A stretch of DNA of 64,000 nt from Macrocystis pyrifera (lineage: Eukaryota > Sar > Phaeophyceae > Laminariales > Laminariaceae). The first letter of the stretch is position 1. Each line of letters starts with the position of its first letter. Shown here in pieces: positions 49,811 through 64,000 of this stretch. The stretch lies in contig JASSKH010000001.1 in assembly GCA_031763025.1 (NCBI GenBank), positions 25,488,539 through 25,552,538 of the forward strand. Reading direction: 5' to 3'. Both the position numbers and the translations under genes were made by a program. The notes under the pieces were generated by a model that saw only the letters and a program-made list of their open reading frames with translations, was not told the origin of the DNA and searched no databases.

Positions 49811-50452
49811 TGGTTTCGAGTCCGTTATTTATTATACAAGCCCTGCACAGAATATCTATATCACACAACGGCAGTTTAGGATATTATAAATGATTCACAA
49901 ATATTTGTGAACTCACAGCTGACGTATTTCAAAATTTATAAGATATTTGTGAAATGAAAAGGTTTCAACATGTTGCAACATCATATCATTATCCCTTGTT
50001 CGGGTTATAAAGTATCAGTGCGCAGCATGATTATTTAAAATTGTCCTGTTGACCCGGGCAGCATCCAGGGGAGCCGCTGGCCTACATCTTTGACAAGGAA
50101 TTACATATAGAATACGCGCGTTCGGTTTATCTCAATACTTGTAAAATTCGGTAAAAATGGAATATAAACGAGATGACGTATCACGCAGCTTGCAAAGTTG
50201 AGTATCGCCTCTGCTTTGAGTTCTGTGTATCTCTCTCCTTTAGTCTCCCTTTCAGTGGTTGTTCTCAGCGAACACCCCCTCTTCGTAGTGTTTGGGTTTT
50301 ATTACGAGGTGTGGGGGGATCTATAGCCTCATTTCTTTTGTTTCGAATAGCCGCATCTTCGACCACCTTTTTCCTGGCCGTTTGGGATGAACTTTGTCAC
50401 CACCTTCCGACCATCTTGTGGTCTGCATATACGACTATTCAGGGTGGGCTAA
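49811..50452. other. Unassigned
   Basis: A+T-rich sequence with a partial dispersed repeat (ACTCACAGCTGACGTATTT at about 49911, also seen near 31100). No gene or complete element is recognised. Confidence 0.5.
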
Positions 50453-50956
50453 TGTGATATGAGTAGAGTACTCATGGGCTATAGATATATATAATACGTT
50501 GCAGTCTTATAGTCTCACGAATACGAGAATAATCCAAAGAATGGATTAACCCGGCGGCTATTCCGTTAGTCGAGAGTAACGTTCTTTTAGGAATGTTCCC
50601 TAGGGCGGATAACCCCCTAGACGAGAGTAATATTCCTTAACGCAGATAGGACCACGAAGTGAGAAGTTCTTATATTAGCAGAAGAAAGATCGGTAGCCAT
50701 AGGAAAGTTCTGTAGGAGTACATCAGATAAGAGGAATTTAGGAGAGCTTGTGGCATGGGGTGGGACGAGTATATCTGGGCGTCGAGTCCCGCCCCCCTAC
50801 CTCTCACTTCTCTACCAGAACACCTCCTGCTCAGCTCTCGCCATCAATAAGAAGATCTAAATCAGAAGAAGCGAAGCACTGCTTTCCAGCTGCCAGAACA
50901 ACCTGCGTCCCTTACCACTACCCTTACCACCACCCTAGAGCGGTCCCCGCTTCACA
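50453..50956 (+). mobile_element. LTR-like repeat, copy 1
   Basis: 504 bp starting TGTGATATGAGTAGAG and ending CCGCTTCACA, so it has TG...CA ends with a short terminal inverted repeat. It contains a TATA-like stretch (ATAGATATATATAATA, about 50480) and small hairpins (GAGTAGAGTACTC). No protein is encoded. Orientation is assigned from the TATA-like stretch. Confidence 0.7.
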
Positions 50957-50962
50957 GTATCA

Positions 50963-51465
50963 TGTGATATGAGTAGAGCACTCATGGGCTATAGATGTAG
51001 ATACTACGTTGCAGTCTTATAGTCTCACGAATACGAGAATAATCCAAGAATGGATTAACCCGGCAGATATCCCGTTAGTCGAGAGTATCGTTATTTTAGG
51101 AATGTTCCCTAGGGCGGATAGCCCGTTAGACGAGAGTAATGTTCCTTAGCGCAGATAGGACCACGAAGTGAGATATTCTTATATTAGCAGAAGAACGATT
51201 GGTAGCCATAGGAAAGTTCTGTAGGCGTACATCAGATAAGAGGAATTTAGGAGAGCTTGTGGCGTGGGGTGGGACGAGTATATCTGGGCGTCGAGTCCCG
51301 CCCCCCTACCTCTCACTTCTCTACCAGAGCACCTCCTGCTCAGCTCTCGCCATCAATAAGAAGATCTAAATCAGAAGAAGCGAAGCACTGCTTTCCAGCT
51401 GCCAGAACAACCTGCGTCCCTTACCACTACCCTTACCACTACCCTAGAGCGGTCTCCGCATCACA
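50963..51465 (+). mobile_element. LTR-like repeat, copy 2
   Basis: 503 bp, nearly identical to copy 1 (roughly 15-20 differences by eye), TGTGATATGAG ... CCGCATCACA with a 6-bp inverted terminus TGTGAT/ATCACA. Only GTATCA separates it from copy 1. Confidence 0.7.
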
Positions 51466-54408
51466 TCTGACGTCGTCGCATTCAACGAATGTTCTGGCCA
51501 AGCTTGGGACTGCAGCGCTCCTTCTAGACCTTCTCACGATCATGTGAGCCATCCCTATCCGGGAGGCATCTGGTTTTGAAGTCACCTTTTTATTTATTTA
51601 TTTTTGTTTATGTTCCCTGTTTCTCGTTTCTTTCGTTCTTCTTCTTGCTCTCTCTTTTCTTTCGTTTTTTCTTCTTTTTATTTTACGAACCAGCGTTACT
51701 GAGTGCCTTTATAGTGTAGAGCGTGACAAGCTGCCTAGTGGCATAAGTAGACGCTTCTCCCCTCCGAGTATAAGTGAGTTGACGCTTCTCCCCTCTTAGT
51801 AGGCACCGTCAAATCGCACGTGCAAGTACGTACAACAAGCTCTGTTGTTCTTTCTTAGTAAGTACTTGATGTATAAGTACTGGTGCTATTAGCAGTATGA
51901 TGATCGAGGTTTGTTTTTCCGCCCCTTATACCCCGTCTCCGCCGTGGAATGACGAGGTCGATGACCTCCACGATACGATTCCACGTGGTTGAATGCACCT
52001 GGAGACCCCCCAAATGACCTCGTGCTCATCGCACAAACCAAGCAGCGTTTTCCTTTGTACCCCTCCGCCTCGATATGCCCGCCCTTTCACAGGAAATGCA
52101 CGTAGTAAGTACTACTGTGTGTGGAACTACTGGCACATTCTTGCCCGCAGACATTTTGTCTGCATCTTCCGGTTTATACCCATGTTCTATGGGATTTGAC
52201 CCTTACCACGACTACAAAGAAGCTGCTATCGTACTGATAGGACAACCACGCAGCAGTACGTACCGACACCTTATTCTTTGGCACGTGATATGTATGCCGG
52301 TGGTGTGACCTACTACGCCATCGTTAGTATACGCATCTGTATGCAGCGTACAAACGGCTTGACCATAATTGCGAATTGTATCCGCTTGTATCCATCGCAT
52401 GGAATATTCGCCTGCGAGTTCTTGAGAGGCCATTATTATTTATTTATTTATTTTTACCTGATACGAGCAATGGTGTACGTATTGACTGACCTCACTTGCG
52501 ACCCCCTGATAGCGAGAAGAATCATAAATATATATTTTTATTATTATTTTTTTTTCCATGCCCTTTGGTTACCGGATTTCAAACCATATACGTACTGGCC
52601 TACAGAGACTGGTATACGAGCGAGGTACAAATATTGAATAGTGGTACCATGGTACGTAGTAATAATATTACGTATGTAGTAGCGAAAATTCCCGTGAACC
52701 CCCCCTCGTTCCCTGCCATATATTTAGGTAGCCAAACGATGCACAATTAGGTCGGTCCCCCCGTCTCGATGTGATGGAGTCGCACATCCATCGTATGTGT
52801 GTGTGTGTGTGTGTTCTTCACATTAAACCGTTCTTCTACTCGTCGACATCCAGCAAGCCCAGTGTCCGTGCTGATTCTTCACCCTAGAAAGATACGAGCT
52901 CTGTGGTCACAGACTACGACACAGAGATAACACACATCGTATAGGAACGCATATACTCACAGACGAATCTTCTATGGTTGCACGTAGCTCTTTTGGGACC
53001 AGCGTACGTATGTACACCCCTCTTCAGATTGGCCCATCCTTAGGCTGCTTCTACCCTACGAGATACAGAACAAGCGGCATGATGCACCTCCTGCGGCGCC
53101 TTCACTATAAAAACAGGGCGCATGTTGCCGAAATTGACCAGATTTCTGCTACCTTTTTTGCCCCACCCCCACAGCCTATAGGATACAAACAACGGTCATT
53201 ATTTTCATTATTTTTTTTTTTATTTTTATTTTTTTTGCTGCTGCTCTTTACGTGCACGTTTTCCAGCGTTGACGACATAATAAGACGGCTTTATGTTGCT
53301 GAACCTCGGCCCACGGCTGCCTGTGTATGCCTAAATTTCCCAGTTTGACGCCAGAAATAAGGTATATGCCGCACAAATAAGTCCGGCTACAGCTCCCCAC
53401 GTGCACGATCTTCCGCGTTAACGACACAACGAGGCTTCATGGCGCCCACAACCTTGTCTGACTACTGCTGTTTACGTCTACCCCCCCCAGCTGTACTACA
53501 TTAACAGAATGTACGACACCTGATCTGGTCCGAATATTCTGTTTGGTCGTGCTGTTGTTTTCCCTCCCTTTCCCGTTTCGCTTTCGACTTTTGTTTTTTG
53601 TTTTTTCTTTTTTTTCCCGACTATTAAGCCAAAGCAGGGTAGACACTGTTCGAGTTTGTAACAAGTGTTATTTTCCAGCGTATCCCATCCCCACCCGCTT
53701 TTACAAATATGCAGGGTACAGGCTGCCTAGAACTGTAACACTACAAAGGAGTAACATATCATCTGTTTATCCCTTGTTTGTCCAGCTTCTCACAAAAACA
53801 GCAGCTGCCTGCTGCTCATATATGGAACATAATAACTGTGGCCCGGGCAGTGACCAGTTCCAAAGAGATGAACTAAATGCTGGCCAAATTAAACAAAATA
53901 ATATACAATTTTTCGCGGCGGATTAGAGTATTGGACCTCCCCACAGGAGCCGAATGATACCCTTTTCCACATTTTTACGTACCGGGGTCTATTTATTTAT
54001 TTTTTGTTTTCCACTTGTGTTACCTCTACGATACCCTACGTATCTCACATCGTGTCGGACCTCGCGACGCCCCGAAATTCACCGGTTGCTGTCTGTTTTG
54101 CCACGGAACGACAAGCTGCCCACCGTTTAGGGAATCGCCCGATATTCTGTGCAGCTACTAAATAGTGCCGGCATGCTGCATTTTTTTTTTCCCCGACTCG
54201 ACCTTCACATTTTCTTTACGGGTACTCTTATTTGTATCCCAACGAAAGGTCTTGCACTAGTAAGCGTCACGCCCTGTTATCATTACGAACATTGGGCATT
54301 TCAGACGGAGTTATGTTCAATTCTGTTCAACTGATATCACTTGAGTGACCCCGGCGCGACTACCGTCAATCAAACGCGAGGCGCCTGGCGCTAGTTAGAT
54401 GCCCTCAA
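51466..54408. other. Unassigned
   Basis: Apart from a dispersed-repeat copy at 52812-52935 (GTTCTTCACATTAAACCGTT to GACACAGAGATAACACAC, preceded by a GT microsatellite) I see only T-rich and A+T-rich sequence without recognised coding regions. The segment next to the gag gene could include the 5' LTR of the Ty3/gypsy element, but no match to the sequence after 63080 is visible. Confidence 0.45.
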
Positions 54409-54419
54409 CTATAAAAATA
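54409..54419 (+). promoter_or_regulatory. TATA-like box upstream of gag
   Basis: CTATAAAAATA lies about 200 bp before the gag ATG, where the promoter of a 5' LTR would be. A possible tRNA primer-binding site, TGGTATTGTAGCC, follows at 54517. Both are guesses by position. Confidence 0.25.
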
Positions 54420-54621
54420 TCCTTCGACGGGCACTAAAATCGTGGCACGCACAACCTCAACACTCCCTATCGTACGTCCTTACCGTCACTCCTTTCTCTC
54501 TCCTAGATCGGTTTGTTGGTATTGTAGCCGCCTACCCTGATCCAAGCCTGGATCCACCCGCCCTCTCCATCTTCCACCAAAACTTTTCCCGCCCCAGTAC
54601 AAGCGTTCCACCCGCCTAAAC

Positions 54622-57240
54622 ATGGCCGAGGAAGCTTCCTCCACCAACATTCCCGGCGCCCACTCCCCCGACGCCACCAACCCCCGCGAGGCGAGGTATG
54701 CCGCAAGGGCCTCTCGCGCTACGGACGACGACACCCGCGGCTTCGAAACCATTCTGAGCGACCTCACGCTACACCCCACCACACCGGGATCCTCTCCACT
54801 AGGAGCAGGTACGACCAGTGCCGTGCCTACCATAAAACCGGAGGTCTCCGCACAGGAAGCCTCCACCCTTGCTCTCCATCCGGGGCGTTACCAAGGCGAT
54901 CCCACGGCCCTCCGTGAGCGCCGTGCGGCCCTCAAAGCCCACCACGAGCAGCTCCTCCTTCTCGCGAAAGAGAGCGCTGACCTCCTACTCGTGCTACCGC
55001 CATCCCCCACTCCTTCTTCGAACCCTTTCGACCCCACCTACGAGACTACAGCTGTGACCGCGACCACCACAACGCAATCGCAGCCGCTCGCTCCGCACCC
55101 GGACCCACCCTTTACGTCCGCCGCGATGTCTAGGACCACCACCCACCAGCCTCCCCAAAACCAAACTGGGACCACAATGTCCCAGGCACCAATTCCGACC
55201 CAACCCTCGCCAGCCCCCATGCCCACTGGGCACAGGCAACCGCAGACGTTCGGAATCGAGTCCAATGACTGGGTCTTCCTGGACGCCAAGCTCCGCTGGA
55301 TGCAGAGTACACGCGACCCGATAGCCTCGGATGTCTCGATAGCGGCACACCGCGTCTGGCGCCTGTTCACACCCGACTGCGACCCGTCGATCACCTTCGT
55401 TCTGGCCCGCGCCGCCACCGAGGGTGCCTCGTCCGAGTTCATCGGGGCCGCCCACACCCTTTTACTCGAGCTACGGTATTTCCACTCCAACGCCGGCCGC
55501 GGCTACGTGTGGAACTCAACCGAGCCTCGACCCACTCTCCCGACACCCCCAACCACCCGCCCCACGACGGACACGCCGCCGGCGATACCGCCCCACTCCA
55601 CCTCGACAACTCCCACGACGGCGACAGCGCCCCCCCACGCACGAGCACTTAGCCTGAGGACAGAAGCCACTACGGAGCCCATGACGGAGGCGGAACGTCG
55701 TAGTGTCCGGCGCCTCTACGCCGGGGTCGATATGCGCAAGTTCACTGCGCTCGTGCGGTTTCCATGCCCGGACAATGTGGAACCCGCCGTCTACCTGGGC
55801 ATGCTCCTCGCCAGCGTGAAACTCGTCCTCGGCGAGATCCTGATAGTGTGCGACGACTCGGAGAAGCAGTCGTTTGAAACACCTCCGTGGGTAGTGGGAT
55901 GGGATGCTCCACTTCAAAGGTGTTTCCGCAAGGCGCTCTCGTCCCCCCAGGTCATGACATCGCCACTGCCTCGCCTCATCGACGATTTCTTCGTCCAGGT
56001 GCGCCAGGAGCTCACCGTCGACAACACCGGACCGTTGGCATTCAAGAAGCTCCTACGTCTACTCACGAACCACTTCGACGACGGCGACCAGGGCCGCGCC
56101 TTCGAGCAGCTCCACACCTTCGGCGTCCCAAATCTGACGGACTTCGCGACCTTCGTCCGTGCCTTTAAAGAACGTGTGTCCATCGCACAAGGCACGGAAC
56201 GGGTCTTCAAGCCGAGCGATGCCATGGTCATCGAGATTGTACGCGGCACTACGGGCAGCCAATACCCGTCCCTCATGCCCACGCTTTATCCGGGGCGCCT
56301 CATGACCACCCCGCAGCCCTTCTCCTCGGTTGCCGACATGTGGGCAGCTTTCGAGTGCTGGCGACCAACAAGACGCCAGCAATCAACGGGCACCGCTTCC
56401 ACGCGACTTCCTCCGGCGGATTCGTCACGTACTCCTCCTCTCCACCGACCCCAGCGCGGCAGCAAACTCCGCGTGGCCCAGGTACCAACACAAGGGGGTC
56501 TTCCTCCAACCCGTTCGTCATGAACGTGGCCGAACAGGGGCGCGACCCGTTCTGCGAGGACGAGGCGGACTGGCCGCTGCGACACTACGAGGAGGTATAC
56601 ATGGTCACGACCACATTCGACCCTCAGACCCCACCGCTCCTGACACCGCTCCTGACGAGCTCGGCCCGTGCCCAAGCCCTACGCGCTCACGGTGGGCATT
56701 GCCTCAACTGCAATGGTACGGACCACAGTATGAAGACCTGCCCCGAGGGCTTCCTCAACACGTCCGGCATCCTGAACCCGGCACTCGGACAGTTGAACGA
56801 TGGTGGACACGCTTACCGCCAATGGCAACGAAGGATGCTCTCCTACCGCCGTGGACAATACGAGCGCAACCTGGAGCGAAACTCCAACCGCTACGACAAC
56901 AACAACCGTCGAGGCAACAACAACAACAACCGCAGCGGAAACTACAACAGCAACCGCTCCAACCAGAACCACTCCTGCAACTACCGTGGCAACAACGGGC
57001 GCTCCGACAACTGGCGCCACAACAACGGCCGGTCATACGACAACGGCAACCGACAGTCGCCAGGGCAACAGTTCCAACAACAACGCATCGAGCCTGCCCC
57101 CCTCGTCTTCCGCGTTGACGGTGCATACCCCTGCGACCAATACTTCCGCACCTGCCGCCCCCGCGAACATGCGGATGGGCAGCACCAACTCGGGCACCCA
57201 CCCGAACCAACGGCAGCCGGGAACCTTCCGCACCAACTGA
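54622..57240 (+). pseudogene. Gag polyprotein with CCHC zinc knuckle (two frame changes)
   Basis: The start ATG 54622 is preceded by stop-rich sequence and opens a 1.7-kb frame. A low-complexity Thr/Pro N-terminal part is followed by a helical capsid-like part (AFKKLLRLLTNHFDDGDQGR, TDFATFVRAFKERVSIAQGT). Around 56350 the coding signal moves to another frame, which carries the zinc knuckle CLNCNGTDHSMKTC (56700-56741, C-x2-C-x4-H-x4-C) and an Asn/Arg/Gly-rich tail. Near 57075 it returns to the first frame and ends at TGA 57238. Gag would package the RNA in cytoplasmic particles. Confidence 0.75.
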
Positions 57241-58134
57241 CAAGCCGATGGTGGAGCAACTGCCGCATCTCCACCAACAGCATCTCCTGCGAGCACCCGA
57301 GGCTCCCAGGACGCACGAGTAAATCACGTGCATCACGCCTCCCCGACCCCTGCCCTCCAATGCCCCCCCCCTACCCCAGCCCATTTCACAGCCACTTGTT
57401 CAAGCACTGATCATCTTGCCCAAGTGATTGCCTTGAGGTGTGGGCGGGAGGAGGCCAAGACGCCGAGCCCCACCGGGATGCTCCACTCGACGTCTTCTGG
57501 CGGTGAGCAACGCTGCTTGCCGACTATTGCCGAGACCCCAGACATTGCTACCCTGGGAAACGTCTCGACGATTACGGCTACCAGCGGTTCCGGTTCACAC
57601 GAAACTAGTGTTTCGTCTACCGGGCCATCGCCCCCTGAGCCTGCCTCAAATTGGCCGCTCCATACGCGCTTGTTCCAGCATGCGCGCATTTCTTGTGACA
57701 GCGTTGAACCCGCGAACGACGGGCTTCCTCCAGCTGCCACGGTGTTGACACCACCGCTGTCCCTGAGCCTCGAGGGACAGTCCCGTTTTAAATACGGAAG
57801 ACTCGCGATCAACGTCGACCAGGGTCTGCCCTGAGCCCCCTGACCCGTCCTCCTCGCCTGCTTCGCGCAAAGCGTGGACACGGACCCCAGGTGTGGCATC
57901 CCCTAGCGAGTATACCCCTGTTCTCCAAAAGTTGGACGATAGGGCGCTTGAGGGTCGTCCCGCCCGGCTTATAAGCCCCGGCGAGGACCGCCCCGGTACC
58001 TCGGCTTTGCCGAGCAATTCCCCCCCGCGAACACGAGGGTTCCGGTCAGCACCGCTCGATCGTTGCTGACTCTACCTCCGTCGACGCCAGGCGGCGATAG
58101 GAATAATGATCGTCGCCCTCCACCCCCAACATAA
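57241..58134 (+). pseudogene. Pol leader or linker region
   Basis: After the gag TGA the same frame stays open for 197 codons (to 57834), rich in Ser, Thr and Pro with no recognised domain. The coding signal then appears in the next frame (57836-58070: SPASRKAWTRTPGVASPSEY and following). This part joins gag to NADAR. Whether it belongs to pol or is an extension of gag is unknown. Confidence 0.5.
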
Positions 58135-58640
58135 AAGACGCCATCAACTGCACACGTCACCGCAGAGGCAGCCTCATCTTTCCACTTCTTTTGGGACTCC
58201 TCTTCGGTCTTTTCGCAGTGGTACCTGTGCGACATCGAACACGATGGCGTCACATACAACTGCGCTGAGCAGATGATGATGGCGCAGAAGGCCGCGCTCT
58301 TCGGGGACATCACAACTGAGCGCCGCATCAAAGCGACCCGCGACCCGGCCCGCCAAAAAGCACTTGGGCGAACCGTTTCCGACTTCGACGAAATGGTCTG
58401 GGAGCGACACCGCTACACCATCGTCCTCTACATTAACTTCTCCAAGTTCCGCCAACACCCGGAGCTACGGGAGGAGCTAATAGCAACCGGCGACAAGCAC
58501 ATCGCCGAGGCCAGCCCCACACGACCTCATCTGGGGCATAGGCTTCAAGGCCGACCATCCGGACGCCTGTGACCCGACGCGTTGGCGTGGTCGGAATCTG
58601 CTGGGCAGGATACTGATGGACGTTCGAGAAAGCCTCGGCG
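58135..58640 (+). pseudogene. NADAR (YbiA-like, DUF1768) domain inside a retrotransposon polyprotein
   Basis: One frame gives FHFFWDSSSVFSQWYLCDIE, DGVTYNCAEQMMMAQKAALF, LGRTVSDFDEMVWERHRYTI and KFRQHPELREELIATGDKHI. After a frame change near 58516-58523 the next gives IWGIGFKADHPDACDPTRWR and GRNLLGRILMDVRESLG. These are the NADAR hallmarks in order: N-C-A-E-Q, the G-R-x-V...F-D-x-x-x-W segment, W-G-I-G and the closing N-L-L-G...L-M-x-V-R. The family acts on ADP-ribose-type N-glycosides, including removal of ADP-ribose from guanine in some DarT-linked systems and riboflavin-intermediate hydrolysis in plants. Its role here is unknown. About 145 residues, the usual size; one indel breaks this copy. 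It reads on into the protease linker, so it is part of pol. Confidence 0.88.
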
Positions 58641-59395
58641 CCAATTGCTCCGCCCAGCCTCCATTTCCTCCCCATCTTCACGACCCGGAGCCAACACCCG
58701 CCCCCACCGACTCCACCCGGGTCTCCCCCACAGCCGACGGCATCCACGAAACAAGCCGGACCCCTCCATGGCAACCGCCTACCTCTCCACTTGGGCCACT
58801 CCTACCGCCGTCTACCCCCGACGCCTACCCCAGCAGCCACTTTGCCCAAGTGTCCACCATCAACACCGCAACTCACAGCCACCTCCCTACCCGCCGCCCG
58901 CCGATACCGGAACACGGACCATCCCTTACACGCGGCATCATTACCGTCGACGACGCGTCGTTCACGACGAAAGTACTCGTGCACAGCGGCCCCACCGCCA
59001 CTACGCGCCGCGAACTCGTGGCACTGCTCGATACCGGCTCGCCCCAGTCGTTTATCCCCGCAACCGCGGTGGAACAACTGAAGGCTTCCCAGGCAGCCAC
59101 CGATGCGTGCGAACGGCACAGTTCCCCCCGTTCATGGGGAGGTTTCGGCACTTCGGCCCCCCTCTCCACCTCCGTCTCCATCCGCTTAAGCATCCAGTTT
59201 ATGCGCCTCCAGTCCCCCACTGCTGCCCTGGCAGTATGGGCCTGCGTAGTTCCTGCAGGAACCATGCAGCCCCCCATCCTTCTGGGACGAGACAGCTGGA
59301 TGCGCTTCGAGCAACGCTCGTATACCACGCTCCAGCAACAGCCCCCACCCCCCCCCACCAACCTCCCCGGCGAACCCGCGGTGAGCTCTCCTTGA
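58641..59395 (+). pseudogene. Retrotransposon aspartic protease
   Basis: After a Pro-rich linker comes GIITVDDASFTTKVLVHSGP, then ALLDTGSPQSFIP with the catalytic D-T-G-S (59030-59041), and ILLGRDSW near the end, the usual C-terminal element. It would cut the polyprotein in the particle. The frame is open from 58616 to TGA 59393 and continuous with the second half of NADAR. The core is intact, but the downstream frame is broken. Confidence 0.85.
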
Positions 59396-60110
59396 ACCAC
59401 CATGACCCCAACGGAGCCTCTGCATTCATTTCCAACGATCTTTCCACTGACGACGTCTACCCCCTCCGATTCGCCGGCAACAAAGCTATTTCGCTTTCCT
59501 CTAACCCCCAAGCTCGTCAAGGTCAACCTGGCGCGTCAGTCAGGCGCTCCAGCATTTACCGGGAACTACATGGTGAACATGCTCCCCCGCGAGAACCCCC
59601 AGTCCGACCCGGCCATTTTCGTCTCCGACGAATACCTAACGGTCCCACTATCTGGATCTACCGACCTCGAGCCGGGCGACCTCCTCGGAACCTCCTGCTC
59701 CCCACTGGTATAGGTACCACTTTCCACCCTTGGACACCCTTCCTTGGCCCCTCCCCATCCCCCTCCGATTCCGGATGCACATGCTCTCCACGACAACATC
59801 CCCGTGGCCGACCAGAGCCCATCGACAGACGACTCTCCTACCGCACCAAAAGCCCCGTGCCCACAACTTCTTGCACGCCTCAACGCCGACCAACGGAAAA
59901 GCTTCCTCGACCTCTGGGAACGTCTGCCGTTACACCTACGCGACGTCAACTTCGACCTGCACGGTTCTAGATGAACCCCGTCGGTGATCAACAACCTGGG
60001 AGACGTCCTCTGCGAATTCCAGGACGTCTTCTCCACCACCAAGACTGACTTCGGCTCGTGCCCGCTCATGCCGTTCAAGATCACCGTACCCCCGGACAGC
60101 CCAACGGCTC
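59396..60110 (+). pseudogene. Pol region between protease and RT, broken
   Basis: Fragments in alternating frames: LSLNHHDPNGASAFISNDLS, VKVNLARQSGAPAFTGNYMV, LLARLNADQRKSFLDLWERL (59860 on), TGA at 59972, then LGDVLCEFQDVFSTTKTDFG and SCPLMPFKITVPPDSP, the typical entry to a Ty3/gypsy RT. No RT catalytic motif follows. Confidence 0.75.
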
Positions 60111-60125
60111 GAGCTCCTTTCAGCG
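60105..60125 (+). other. Internal deletion junction removing RT and most of RNase H
   Basis: The N-terminal edge of RT (ITVPPDSPTARAPF) is followed within a few codons by AYTYTLEYRKGTAKGNADFL, the C-terminal end of RNase H. Related elements have about 400 residues between these points, so over 1 kb is lost, including the catalytic Y-x-D-D box. Confidence 0.85.
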
Positions 60126-62369
60126 TACACCTACACGCTGGAGTACCGGAAGGGCACGGCCAAAGGAAACGCCGACTTCCTCTCCCGGCTTCCCCAACCA
60201 GCCACCGACGCCGACCGCACCGGACGTAACCGCCGCACTGGCCCCGACACCGTCGGCATCTACCTCATCCGCCCCTGCGGCTTCGCGCCGAACGACCCTT
60301 CCACCCCGGGTATCGGCTTGGGTGGGCTCGTGTCCCCCCCTTCCAGACCCATCCCAACCGTCCAGCCGCTCCCCTTCACCGACGACGACTTCCGCGACTT
60401 TCGCCTACTCGGACCACGTATGGAGCACCCCACCCTTTCCCCCGCAACCCACACCTTCATCGGGCCTATTGCGACCCGCGACTCCACCACCGGACAGCTT
60501 ACCGGCACCGAGAATGCCGCCGTGAACACCGGAGCTCCTCCAGGCTCGGCTTCAATGCCGTCCGTCGTCTCTCCGCCGCCCACCATTGGCGCCACGACAC
60601 CAGCCCTTCCAGGTCTGATATCTTCTCGGACCCGCCATCGCGTCGCCGCTGCCGCGGGAACCCCTCGGCCTACAGCCGACTACCGGTTTGGACGCCGACC
60701 GCCACCCAAGCCATTGGCGCCCACTACGCAAAGAACGATCCCCTCAACAACGCCCTCTCCGCCGGCACCAACACCACCGGTAGTGCCCCTTCTGGAGCCC
60801 GTCGGTGAACCCGATGACGATCCCTACCTCCTCGCCTACGTCGAGCACTACACCTACAAAGACTGGGCGCGAGAAAAAGGCGCGGAGCCCCTGTGCTGCG
60901 CCACCATCCGCTTCCTGTCGTTGGACTCCCCCAGCCCCACGCCGCACGACCTCCTGGACTTCATCCCCCCGGCCCGGCGCCCACAACTTTCGGACGTCCT
61001 CACTCTTGCATCCAAAAGCAAGCTACACCGTACCGACGACGAAACCACCCTCCTGGTCCAACGACCACCCACAACCTCATCCGGGAACAGCCTACCACCA
61101 CCCGCCCCCTCTACCCCACGCGTCTACGTGCCAATGTTAATGCGCCCTTGGGTGCTGAACACATGCCACGCCACCACCTCTCTACACCTGGGAGTCACCC
61201 GAACGGTCCGCATGTTGGCACGTTTCTTTTGGTGGATTGGCATGGACGATTCCGTCCGCAGGTGGATCCGCGGTTGCCTTCAATGCCAGGCGCGGAAGAC
61301 CTCCCGGCACACCATTCGTTGGCCCATCCTTTCTCTTCCTTTGCCCAACGGGCCTGGCATCACCGTCAACGTCGACTACTTCGGGCCCCTGCCGCTCACA
61401 CCGCGCGGGAACGTCCACATCCTCCTCTTCACAGACCGCTTCAGTCGCCGCGCCGATATGTATGCCGTTTCAGCGGCGCAGTTCACGGCCGCCGGCACTG
61501 CCGACATCTTCCTGAACGAGTACATCCCTCTCTGGGGGTGCCCGGTTACACTTCTCTCCGACAACGGACTACACTTCACCTCCAAGCTTGCGAACATCGT
61601 CTACGAACGCCTTGGCATCCACGAGGTCAACACCAGCTCCTACCACCCCTGCACCAACGGCCGCGTCGAGCGCGTCAACCACGTACTGGCCCAAATGCTC
61701 TCTATGGTTGGCAACGAACAGCAGACCGACTGGGACGTGCTGCTCCCACACGTGTCGTCGGCCTACAACAATTCCGTGAACGCCGCCACAGGGCTTGCAC
61801 CTAACGAAATCCACATGGGCCGCCTTCCTCGCCTCCTGCTCTCGGTCTTCGAACCCGACAATATTGGCGGTCACCAAAGCCTGGACCGCGATCACCTGGT
61901 TTACATCAAACTCGCCACCGACCGACAACGACGCGCCTATTCCCTCGTCCGCGAACTACACCGACTCACCGTCTCGCGTCTTCAGCGCCGCAATGCGCCC
62001 ATCATGGCCGCCCTCCTAGCATCTCCCCCCTTCACCGTAGGCGGCTGGGTTTGGGTCTACAACTCCGCCTCAACCATCCGCCAAGGCGTCAAAAAGGGCA
62101 CCGACGCAACCGTCCTCAAGACGAAGCTTTCCCTGAACTGGAATGGCCTCTTCAAGGTCCTCGCCGTAGGGCCGACGCCCGCCTCAAACACCCCCGACAA
62201 TCGCCCCCTTCACGTCAAGCTACTTTTCCTCGACCTTCCATCCGACCTCCCGGGACGGGACTCCAAGCCACGCGTCTCCGTCCAACGATGCAAACCTTGC
62301 CGGAACCCCGACGACACCAGCGACATCCCCAAGCATCTGCCCGGGACCTTACTACATACGTGCTCATAG
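60126..62369 (+). pseudogene. RNase H end plus integrase
   Basis: One open frame of about 750 codons. It starts with the last RNase H strand (TLEYRKGTAKGNADFLSRLP) and then a Pro-rich spacer. The integrase HHCC zinc site follows (H 61166, H 61184, C-x2-C 61275-61286 in RGCLQCQARK). The catalytic core has Asp in VNVDYFGPL (61374), Asp in LLSDNGLHF (61560) and Glu in GRVERVNHVL (61668), a D-x61-D-x35-E arrangement. An SH3-like part follows (GGWVWVYNSASTIRQGVKKG, LKTKLSLNWNGLFKVLAVGP). It would insert the cDNA in the nucleus. The integrase itself looks intact. Confidence 0.9.
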
Positions 62370-63079
62370 CTTCTGCCGCCAAGTCCCCCCCTTACCACGT
62401 CACCGTCGACAACGTCACTCCTCCACCGGAACGCCTCGAGGTCGAGCAGATCACTGGCCATCAACTCGTACGCGGCCGCGGCGGGGTCATCGCCGTTCTG
62501 TACGAGACTCACTGGACTGGACTTCTCAGCCCCTCTTGGGAACGCGAGCTGGACCTTCAACACTTCCGGCGCCACATCCTACTGTACTGGTCACGATCAC
62601 CAACCCAGCACCGCCAGACGAACCGCCTCTACCGCCAGATGCGCATCGGCGCCGCTCACCGCGAACTGGCCCGATCTCAAGGACAAATCTTCCTCGCCCC
62701 AGGCTACGCCTTGGTCTCCCGCAGCCTTTGGCTCCACAACTTCAGCACCACCATCCTACCCTCCGGAGCACACATATGGTACAAGGCGCGCGACGGCCTT
62801 TGGTGGCTGGGCAAGGTCGCTCACAGCTCACCCCCTGACGCCTCTTCGGGAACTCCGCCGGAGTCTTCACCGGGAAGCTCCTACATCGTCCGGTTCCTGG
62901 ACGACCCCGGCCCGATCAAGATCGACCTCCAACCCGCCCGCTACACTACAGCACGGAACGCCGTATACGGATCGTGGTGTCTTCAACGCCATGGGAATGG
63001 GAGCCTAGCACGTGGGGTGCCGCGGAACTCCGATGTGTCCCGCGGAACCCCCACCGTTTCCACTCCCCCCCCTGGTTAG
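62370..63079 (+). pseudogene. Integrase C-terminal extension with chromodomain-like segment
   Basis: After a frameshift near 62350, the adjacent frame reads YHVTVDNVTPPPERLEVEQI, TGHQLVRGRGGVIAVLYETH and WTGLLSPSWERELDLQHFRR. The spacing of the aromatic residues and the W-x-G...W-E pattern recall the chromodomain that targets chromoviral integrases to chromatin. A further conserved-looking part (SGAHIWYKARDGLWWLGKVA) runs to the TAG at 63077. Assignment as a chromodomain is tentative. Confidence 0.6.
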
Positions 63080-64000
63080 CTTTAGTTTAGTATTTTGTTA
63101 GTTCTGGGTATTTGGTTCTGGTTAGTCTACAATATCTTCAGAGTAGTTCTTCAGGGTTAGTCTTCAATAGTCATCAGCAGTCATCTTCTTGGGAATGTTT
63201 GTTTCCATCTACCGCCACCGGTATCGCTTGACCCACCCCGTGTTGGCTACCGATCCGAGGCCGTGTATGTTTCCTTTTTGGGTGTGTTTGGGAGTATCAT
63301 CGTCCCCCCCCCCCCCGCCGTTTGTTTTTCTTCTTATCTCCTACGGCTCCGTGTAACCTCCTTACGTTCAGGCCACCGACTCGTAGCAATACCTTCATTT
63401 GCATTTGTGTTCGTACTCCAATAGCCTACAGCCAATTATCGGCGATATCACGCCGAGGTAAAATCGTGTTGTAGCCTGAGCTGTACTCTGACCTTAGTCG
63501 ACTTCCGCCGACCTGTGTTTCAGACGGTCCTCGAGCTAAGACTATATCGAGCTTCCAGCTCACCCGTGTTCCTTCCATGTTTGACAAGTAGGGTCCCGAT
63601 AGCATTGCCGCCCCGGAAGGCCGCTGAGTTATCGGCCATACATAAGCGGTTCGGACATGATCGATTTCTCCTGACCTGTGTCCAGCTTTTTGTCTGTTTT
63701 CTGGTCCCGATGGTATTTCGTTTTCTGTTTCCCTTTTCTTCTTCATTCTTTCTTGTCCGGTATTCCGCACACCCCTCTGTCCTCTGGCAAACGACACCAC
63801 GTTTGATGTCGCCCCGGTTGACCGAGTTGCACACGCTAGTGTTTGGGCCCCGCGCTATCTACAACTTCGAACTGCACGCATTAGGCCTATTTTCTTGCGG
63901 ATTTTCTTGCCGCCACCGTCTTTGAGTTTGGTTTTGTTGAGTTGGCTACCTTGCTACGTTTGCTAGTTTTGTTCACACCACGAACAGGTCTCCCAGACGC
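63080..64000. other. Downstream flank, possibly the 3' LTR
   Basis: T-rich sequence directly after the last pol codon (GTTAGTTCTGGGTATTTGG and on) is where a 3' LTR should start. No TG start with matching sequence upstream of gag was found. A C-run lies at 63306-63317. No gene is recognised. Confidence 0.4.

What the first reader, a model, noticed from the sequence alone, without database searches (positions are those of the whole stretch)
58135..58640. NADAR (YbiA-like) domain built into an LTR retrotransposon polyprotein
Seen: all NADAR hallmark segments lie in order between the gag/linker region and the aspartic protease, on the same strand and with the same C-rich codon use. The frame of the second half runs without a stop into the protease. 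Known: NADAR proteins bind or hydrolyse ADP-ribose-type N-glycosides and can reverse ADP-ribosylation of guanine in some anti-toxin systems. Inference: the element may carry it to undo ADP-ribosylation of its RNA, cDNA or proteins by the host, a counter-defence, or to process NAD-derived nucleotides in particles. I know of no established NADAR-bearing Ty3/gypsy lineage.
Basis: partly seen in the sequence, partly recalled or inferred. Interest (0 to 1): 0.92.

Follow-up and report, generated by a model that had tools for sequence, protein, structure and literature searches.

The report
Kelp retrotransposon carrying ADP-ribose-removing domain
A jumping gene with many copies in what appears to be a kelp genome carries, inside its own polyprotein, an enzyme domain whose relatives strip ADP-ribose from DNA and RNA; such elements are already reported from another brown alga, but this family seems to carry a different version of the domain, perhaps from a second capture.

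Summary
The NADAR domain is real: PF08719, E 1e-32, at 58186-58636, split by a frameshift near 58514-58524. It sits in pol, between gag and the aspartic protease, of a 14.2-kb Ty3/Gypsy element. The LTRs (50963-51465 and 64638-65138) have 2 mismatches in 500 aligned bases. This copy is young but broken: NADAR is frameshifted, stops interrupt pol, RT plus RNase H are deleted, so it was probably mobilised in trans. It is not a one-off: the same genome (statistics match Macrocystis pyrifera) holds at least 150 NADAR places; all 62 copies read fall in two families, A and B.

The architecture is in print: Genome Biol 2025 reports an Ectocarpus Gypsy lineage with NADAR at the N-terminus of Pol. Our RT tree places the window's element in that lineage.

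What looks new: family B (the window's) has RT firmly inside this lineage, but its NADAR does not group with the other element NADARs and shows no clear excess similarity to them. That suggests a domain swap or second capture at the same slot. AU tests are mixed, so about 60%.

Main ADP-ribose-contacting residues are conserved, so an active enzyme is likely. Counter-defence is plausible but untested.

The parts
50963..51465 (+). 5' LTR (503 bp, TGTGAT...ATCACA)
   Evidence: 2 mismatches and 4 gap columns over 500 aligned bases against the 3' LTR at 64638-65138. The 3' LTR lies beyond the window end and was read in L081. ATCA on both outer sides.
50963..64000 (+). The retrotransposon insertion as far as the window reaches (it ends at 65138; 14,176 bp in all)
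   Evidence: LTR pair and target duplication; shared with other copies of family B.
54541..57237 (+). gag region, broken into several frames in this copy; CCHC zinc-knuckle pattern at 56700-56741
   Evidence: No Pfam hit to the two gag-region ORFs given. Zinc-knuckle and gag readings are by pattern and position, recalled.
57238..57240 (+). TGA between gag end and pol start, same frame
   Evidence: TGA also in L034 and L035; GGA in L037 and L040 (4 of 5 of the 10-kb B loci gave a readable site).
58186..58636 (+). NADAR domain (YbiA type), frameshifted at about 58514-58524 in this copy
58261..58281 (+). NADAR motif with the glutamate equivalent to E43 of the P. nicotianae enzyme
   Evidence: residue mapping by me from the alignment and PMC11543638 (passages).
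58501..58518 (+). NADAR motif with the YbiA-subfamily glutamate equivalent to E125
   Evidence: PMC11543638 (passages).
58637..59395 (+). Linker and retropepsin-like aspartic protease (DTG at 59024-59041)
   Evidence: (Asp_protease_2, E 0.026, below cut-off).
60106..60107 (+). Junction of a deletion of about 1.17 kb that removes RT and RNase H
   Evidence: same junction in 12 of 15 family-B copies examined, the window included.
61128..61649 (+). Integrase: H2C2 zinc-binding part and rve core
   Evidence: H2C2 7.4e-16; rve 1.4e-5, 25.7 bits, under Pfam's 32.6 cut-off.
62438..62593 (+). Chromodomain-like stretch after the integrase (weak)
   Evidence: PF00385 E 0.093, below cut-off.

Best explanation
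This is a recent but defective copy of an LTR retrotransposon of the Ty3/Gypsy type. In its lineage Pol begins with a NADAR ADP-ribosyl hydrolase, followed by protease, RT, RNase H and integrase. Shown: architecture, copy number, conserved active-site residues, LTRs, shared RT deletion. Inferred: the domain is made as part of Gag-Pol past a single in-frame UGA, is packaged with the element's RNA and removes ADP-ribose from bases of the RNA or of single-stranded cDNA, so that host modification cannot block reverse transcription. Also inferred: in the window's family the domain was exchanged for a different free-standing-type NADAR. Defective copies such as this one move with proteins supplied by intact relatives. 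My rough split: NADAR-Gypsy element 0.98; domain swap 0.6; nucleic-acid de-ADP-ribosylation as the role 0.45.
For: Domain and order: (L033: one 1696-aa frame with NADAR, RT, RNase H; L035: 1231 aa likewise). Copies: one search scored 150 of 1264 candidates, all 150 over cut-off; the control search over 14 well-known genomes rang in 3. Active site: five contacts (E43, K50, W89, E125, W133) are all kept without a stop in 22 of 26 family-A and 34 of 36 family-B copies, and in 24 of 25 (4 more rows have a gap), 28, 29, 29 and 29 of 29 element rows. Purifying selection: shared variants in family A, N 12 S 14 against 18.8 N expected, p 0.004, no depletion in wrong frames. Swap: RT puts B inside the lineage (100/99 support; AU against B outside, p 0.012). 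B's NADAR lies apart from the other element NADARs in 4 of 4 trees shown. A-B identity exceeds the mean of A-to-others in protease, RT and RNase H but not in NADAR. The excess similarity to element NADARs is 0.005 for B against 0.059-0.139 for 10 others, and 0.018 against 0.048-0.122 with 80 bacterial NADARs ranked by likeness to family A. B's similarity to outsiders lies within the range of the other elements, so plain acceleration does not explain it well. Trans mobilisation: LTRs 2 mismatches in 500 although pol is broken.
Against: AU tests of the NADAR tree are not stable. All element NADARs as one clade: p 0.002, 0.057, 0.22 and 0.26 in four row sets, and 0.10 when free-standing P0043 is let in. 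A plus B as sisters: p 0.0006, 0.29 and 0.028, and RT supports that sisterhood only at 85 in the quick tree and not in the careful one. In one search the other element NADARs are not one clade either: the P0140 group stands apart, weakly. B is slightly less similar to the 125 free-standing NADARs than family A is (mean -0.012; closer in 42 of 125). The domain has only about 150 columns. No donor is close (best about 56% identity). Selection in family B alone is not significant (N 16, S 13, p 0.08), nor in the 11 family-A copies used for RT (N 6, S 3, p 0.36); copies were picked by NADAR score, which favours intact ones. R93, also an ADP-ribose contact, is not conserved (20 R, 9 C of 29); Y84 and D86 were not examined. 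No activity, substrate, packaging or host ADP-ribosyltransferase was shown.
Confidence: 0.55

Rival explanations
1. One single capture of NADAR in the ancestor of the lineage; family B's domain simply diverged in an unusual way, perhaps under changing selection.
For: AU tests do not reject all element NADARs as one clade in 2 of 4 row sets clearly and in a third marginally (p 0.22, 0.26, 0.057). Same position in Pol in both families. NADAR and RT identities correlate among the other lineages (r 0.77).
Against: B's mean residual from that correlation is -0.099, while the 13 other lineages range from -0.063 to +0.033. B is not unusually far from outside NADARs.
Confidence: 0.35
2. The domain does not act on nucleic acid but on soluble NAD- or ADP-ribose-derived signals or on riboflavin-type N-glycosides in the cell.
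For: PMC9503650 (passages) favours soluble ADP-ribose derivatives for phage NADARs. E. coli YbiA cleaves riboflavin intermediates (PMC11543638, passages). The NCBIfam hit is the riboflavin-intermediate glycosidase model.
Against: The same review favours macromolecular ADP-ribose for NADARs inside polyproteins of eukaryotic RNA viruses, which resemble this case. A eukaryotic YbiA-type NADAR acts on guanine-ADP-ribose DNA, and NADARs act on guanosine-ADP-ribose RNA (PMC11833690, passages).
Confidence: 0.3
3. A structural or RNA-binding part of the particle that has lost enzyme activity.
For: Function is untested. The R93 equivalent is not conserved (20 R, 9 C of 29 element rows), though it varies in free-standing NADARs too (36 R of 125).
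Against: The E43, K50 and E125 equivalents are nearly invariant across lineages that differ at about half of their positions.
Confidence: 0.1
4. A chance insertion of a host or bacterial NADAR gene into one element copy.
For: None beyond the window copy being broken.
Against: At least 150 places in this genome; NADAR with RT in Ectocarpus and other records.
Confidence: 0.01

Closest known systems
NADAR-bearing Gypsy lineage of Ectocarpus (e.g. Gypsy-12_Ec32), PMC12477816, passages seen
   Same: Ty3/Gypsy; YbiA-type NADAR at the N-terminal part of Pol; our RT trees join the window's family with Ectocarpus proteins P0149, P0151 and P0166.
   Different: Different host (statistics of giant kelp). 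Family B's NADAR does not group with the Ectocarpus-type NADARs. An RT-less form makes up 12 of 15 B copies sampled.
Tx1 LINEs of Pacific oyster with NADAR in ORF1 (reported in PMC12477816)
   Same: Retrotransposon carrying a NADAR domain.
   Different: A LINE with NADAR in ORF1; not examined here.
Phytophthora nicotianae YbiA-type NADAR (8BAU) and E. coli YbiA (2B3W)
   Same: Same fold: a model of P0001, a family-B relative, matches 8BAU (E 5e-9) and YbiA (E 6e-7), the only two PDB hits under 0.001. Same E43, K50 and E125 equivalents.
   Different: Not described as part of a retroelement polyprotein in the passages seen.
NADAR domains in polyproteins of invertebrate RNA viruses (PMC9503650, passages)
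   Same: NADAR embedded in a replicative polyprotein; proposed to remove host ADP-ribosylation.
   Different: RNA viruses, no reverse transcription; not compared by sequence here.
Retrotransposons with captured cytosine methyltransferases (PMC5890265, search listing only)
   Same: Repeated capture of a host-interaction enzyme by retrotransposons.
   Different: A different enzyme and different lineages.

Membership tests
NADAR / YbiA subfamily | PF08719 above curated cut-off | tested here: met
   113.9 and 43.3 bits against 35.1; 150 of 150 scored places over cut-off
NADAR / YbiA subfamily | NADAR fold | tested here: met
   Model of family-B relative P0001 (mean pLDDT 82.5) matches 8BAU and 2B3W; the window copy itself was not folded
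NADAR / YbiA subfamily | Glutamate at the E125 position (aspartate in BC4488 type, histidine in phage type, per PMC11543638) | tested here: met
   E in 62 of 62 fetched copies and 29 of 29 element rows
NADAR / YbiA subfamily | Hydrolysis of ADP-ribosyl or related N-glycosidic bonds | not testable with these tools
   Needs an enzyme assay
Ty3/Gypsy LTR retrotransposon | LTR pair with TG...CA ends and short target duplication | tested here: met
Ty3/Gypsy LTR retrotransposon | Order protease, RT, RNase H, integrase | tested here: met
   Met in relatives: L034 and L035 (protease by DTG motif only), P0132 (RT, RNase H, integrase). In the window copy RT and RNase H are deleted
Published Ectocarpus NADAR-Gypsy lineage | Common descent by RT | tested here: met
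   RT+RNase H trees with Ectocarpus proteins; the Repbase sequence of Gypsy-12_Ec32 itself was not compared
Published Ectocarpus NADAR-Gypsy lineage | NADAR of the same descent | tested here: inconclusive
   B apart from the other element NADARs in 4 of 4 trees shown; AU p from 0.002 to 0.26
Published Ectocarpus NADAR-Gypsy lineage | C-terminal chromodomain | tested here: inconclusive
   PF00385 E 0.093, below cut-off

The most novel reading that the evidence does not exclude
One Gypsy lineage of brown algae took up a NADAR enzyme at least twice at the same place in Pol, replacing the first with a different bacterial-type version in the ancestor of family B. Such convergence would mean that brown-algal cells ADP-ribosylate retroelement nucleic acid as a defence and that the element must carry an eraser whose specificity is renewed in an arms race.
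Probability: 0.3. Interest if true: 0.8.

Novelty: new variant of a known kind. Interest (0 to 1): 0.52.

Why it matters
If elements keep and even replace an ADP-ribose eraser in Pol, reversible ADP-ribosylation of RNA or cDNA is probably a real pressure on retroelements. Brown algae would then be a place to look for the writer enzyme. The many intact domains here are ready material for enzyme assays. The find also extends the Ectocarpus observation to a second genome and gives a testable case of exchange of an accessory domain.

Tried and rejected
One-off insertion: rejected. Spliced transcript as the source of the RT deletion: rejected, since the printed deletion edges in L035 and L034 do not read GT...AG. 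Element end near 52984: rejected when L037 and L039 proved to share sequence further upstream; the LTRs were found. Locus C194:4902149 as a host NADAR gene: rejected, it is 90% identical to family A. Viral (IMG/VR) contigs as donor: 505 relatives found, the 80 best kept, 32-47% identity over the best segment to P0001; 20 of those 80, plus L001 and L002, were put in a tree. L001 and L002 fell into a weakly supported group (40/67) with B; none joined B with support (the bootstrap had not settled). First reading of loci L003-L032 took some on the wrong strand, corrected. First selection run for family B gave a ratio near 1 because two copies were misaligned; corrected, and two copies missed at first were added.

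Rows dropped before counts: 16 loci that repeat copies already held. In NADAR trees, rows with under about 100 aligned residues and eight named fragments were left out, ten element rows were left out, and of the 125 free-standing rows 69, 26 or 25 and 31 were used. In one search, 36 of 80 bacterial loci and 10 free-standing rows were used; all 80. RT trees: proteins with under about 300 aligned residues left out and 14 outgroup rows kept (60 rows); 31 of those 60 rows, which warned that the long outgroup branch meets the rest.

Full report
What is there. The two halves of the finding match the Pfam NADAR profile at 113.9 bits (profile 1-126) and 43.3 bits (profile 123-162), that is window 58186-58524 and 58514-58636 in neighbouring frames. 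NCBIfam gives the riboflavin-intermediate N-glycosidase model TIGR02464 at 104.3 bits over a cut-off of 73.7 for the first half, and the closest solved chain is 8BAU, E 7e-12. The second frame continues into a protease with a DTG motif (59024-59041). Upstream lies gag with a CCHC pattern (56700-56741) whose last frame ends in a TGA (57238-57240), after which pol starts in the same frame. Downstream are an integrase zinc-binding part and core, the core below Pfam's cut-off, and a very weak chromodomain-like stretch (E 0.093).

The element. The LTRs are 50963-51465 and 64638-65138 (TGTGAT...ATCACA), with 2 mismatches and 4 gap columns over 500 aligned bases and ATCA on both outer sides. The second LTR lies beyond the window and was read from L081. 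The copy is 14.2 kb and young, yet broken: in the NADAR frame there are stops at 57832, 57841, 57904, 57940, 57949 and 58132, the domain is frameshifted, and about 1.17 kb with RT and RNase H is missing at 60106/60107. The same junction was seen in 12 of 15 family-B copies whose downstream part I had, the window included; L034, L035 and L060 keep RT and RNase H, in L034 with a shift inside RT. A young copy without its own RT and with a broken NADAR was most likely moved by proteins from elsewhere (inference).

The genome. The window lies in an assembly of 537,376,219 bases in 223 contigs whose longest contig seen is 26.5 Mb. These match the published giant kelp assembly, 537 Mb, 223 sequences, largest 26 Mb (PMC10498591, passages). 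The name is therefore inferred. A search for PF08719 scored 150 of 1264 candidates; all 150 passed the cut-off, and by my count by eye of the table 126 of 150 have no stop inside; the control search rang in 3 of 14 known genomes. A second search with a free-standing NADAR (150 of 1268 scored) gave largely the same places. Two families, A and B, account for all 62 different copies that I read (26 and 36); two more short loci are A and B as well.

Architecture in relatives. L033 (family A) has one open frame of 1696 aa with NADAR 233-382, RT 886-1043 and RNase H 1140-1242. L035 (family B) has one of 1231 aa with NADAR 30-179, RT 712-870 and RNase H 964-1068. In L034 the frame is open from the codon after the gag TGA through NADAR into RT. 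In L037 and L040 that codon is GGA. Gag-Pol by passage through one stop is thus the simple reading, not shown.

Outside this genome. A search with the NADAR-to-RNase H part of L033 listed 120 of 123 proteins (only the 7989 candidates sharing most words were scored). Many carry NADAR together with RT by their precomputed Pfam domains, and these include Ectocarpus sp. CCAP 1310/34 proteins P0149, P0151, P0163 and P0166. NADAR starts about 650-730 residues before RT in P0132-P0135, P0137, P0138 and P0140-P0144; it is 255-385 in P0149, P0151 and P0166, which are gene models of Ectocarpus. A more distant relative, P0158, has about 690 residues before RT and no NADAR hit, which hints that the domain was gained after that branch.

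Prior art. PMC12477816 (Genome Biol, 29 Sep 2025; [quoted passage not shown] it suggests RNA processing. My searches for NADAR with retrotransposon (20 of 104 papers listed), with brown algae (10 of 65), NADAR domain with transpos (4 of 4), and YbiA with Gypsy (1 of 1) showed, by title and start of abstract, no other paper on NADAR in retrotransposons. I did not read that paper in full or its supplements, so I cannot say that it does not discuss exchange of the domain.

A different NADAR in family B. By RT and RNase H, family B sits with P0139 and P0150 (100/100) inside an 18-row clade (100/99) that holds family A and the Ectocarpus proteins; a tree with B outside the other NADAR-lineage rows is rejected, AU p 0.012. 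Whether A is B's nearest sister is open: 85 in the quick tree, unresolved in the careful one. By NADAR, B (with P0001, and also P0002 and P0004) lies apart from the other element NADARs in each of four trees. In the first three the others form a clade (98; 96/98; 95/97) that also takes in free-standing P0043 and, P0114; the P0140 group stands apart from the rest with weak support. B's neighbour is free-standing P0003 (80) and P0106 in the other three (93/87, 93/70, 99/82). Identity by region tells the same: A-B against the mean of A-to-others is 0.585 against 0.513 in protease, 0.778 against 0.645 in RT, 0.806 against 0.693 in RNase H, but 0.513 against 0.569 in NADAR; in the poorly conserved linker it is 0.203 against 0.217. 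Similarity to main element NADARs minus similarity to 125 free-standing ones is 0.005 (-0.034 to 0.048) for B and 0.059 to 0.139 for ten others, all with intervals above zero. With 80 bacterial loci ranked by likeness to family A, a choice that works against the idea, B's value is 0.018 (-0.016 to 0.056) and the ten others' 0.048 to 0.122, again all above zero, the lowest just so (P0140, from 0.006). B's identity to these bacteria (0.467-0.477) lies within the range of the others (0.445-0.515), so B does not look simply faster.

Results against the swap. AU tests of the NADAR data alone are unstable. All element rows as one clade: p 0.002, 0.057 (P0043 removed), 0.22, 0.26, and 0.10 with P0043 inside. 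A and B as sisters: 0.0006, 0.29, 0.028. B is on average 0.012 less similar to the 125 free-standing NADARs than family A is, and closer than A to 42 of 125. The 125 were found with a profile that held both A and B type rows. I therefore hold the swap at about 60%. The four loci that rank best for family A among named bacterial genomes are myxobacterial (56-60%; a Prevotellaceae genome has 57%); no donor of B's domain is close (best about 56%).

Is the enzyme likely active? In the P. nicotianae enzyme E43, K50, W89, E125 and W133 contact ADP-ribose, and E125 marks the YbiA subfamily (PMC11543638, passages); the mapping to these sequences is mine, from the alignment. These five are kept, without a stop, in 22 of 26 family-A and 34 of 36 family-B copies, and nearly always in element rows across records. 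R93, another contact, is not (20 R, 9 C of 29), as also in free-standing NADARs (36 R of 125); Y84 and D86 were not examined. A model of P0001, a family-B relative, matches 8BAU and YbiA and no other chain under E 0.001. Within families, variants shared by two or more copies are depleted in amino-acid changes in A (12 N, 14 S, expected N 18.8, p 0.004) and in the RT of 11 A copies (3 N, 8 S, p 0.012), but not significantly in the NADAR of those same 11 copies (6 N, 3 S, p 0.36), in B (16 N, 13 S, p 0.08) or in the 11 known RT-less copies (4 N, 4 S, p 0.25); wrong reading frames show no depletion of shared variants. Copies were chosen by NADAR score, which flatters these numbers.

Mechanism. 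NADARs reverse guanine ADP-ribosylation of DNA and of RNA (PMC11833690, passages), and in RNA-virus polyproteins they are thought to undo host marks (PMC9503650, passages). Placed in Pol next to protease and RT, the domain would enter the particle with the template. Removing ADP-ribose from RNA or cDNA bases is the reading I favour. Small NAD-derived substrates remain possible. Presence of a host writer could not be tested, since the genome search for PF00644 did not complete. Whether NADAR is kept more than other parts could not be tested either, since every copy was found through NADAR.

Noticed in passing
window 50205-50956: The 3' end (internal stretch plus LTR) of another copy of the same family lies directly upstream of this element's 5' LTR.
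   Followed up: partly
window 55709-56669; L034, L037, L039, L040: About 960 bp of gag present in the window and in L035 is missing in 4 of 5 other 10-kb family-B loci with the same or nearly the same edges: a second internal deletion, found with and without the RT deletion.
   Followed up: partly
L034:3302-3304, L035, window 57238-57240; L037, L040: Gag and pol share a frame and are parted by a TGA; two RT-less copies have GGA there.
   Followed up: partly
P0247: A 2848-aa predicted protein with NADAR (38-189) and a C5 cytosine DNA methylase domain (569-938); nature unknown.
   Followed up: no
P0241: A 2861-aa Gypsy-type polyprotein with precomputed C5 DNA methylase and PHD domains.
   Followed up: no
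P0246: A 1051-aa protein that joins NADAR with PF03747, PF01661 (Macro) and PF10021 domains by its precomputed Pfam list; the names of the domains are recalled.
   Followed up: no
L165-L168: The four best-ranked named bacterial relatives of the family-A NADAR are myxobacterial (56-60%); together with free-standing P0043 they form a 99/98 group that falls near the main element NADARs with weak support.
   Followed up: partly
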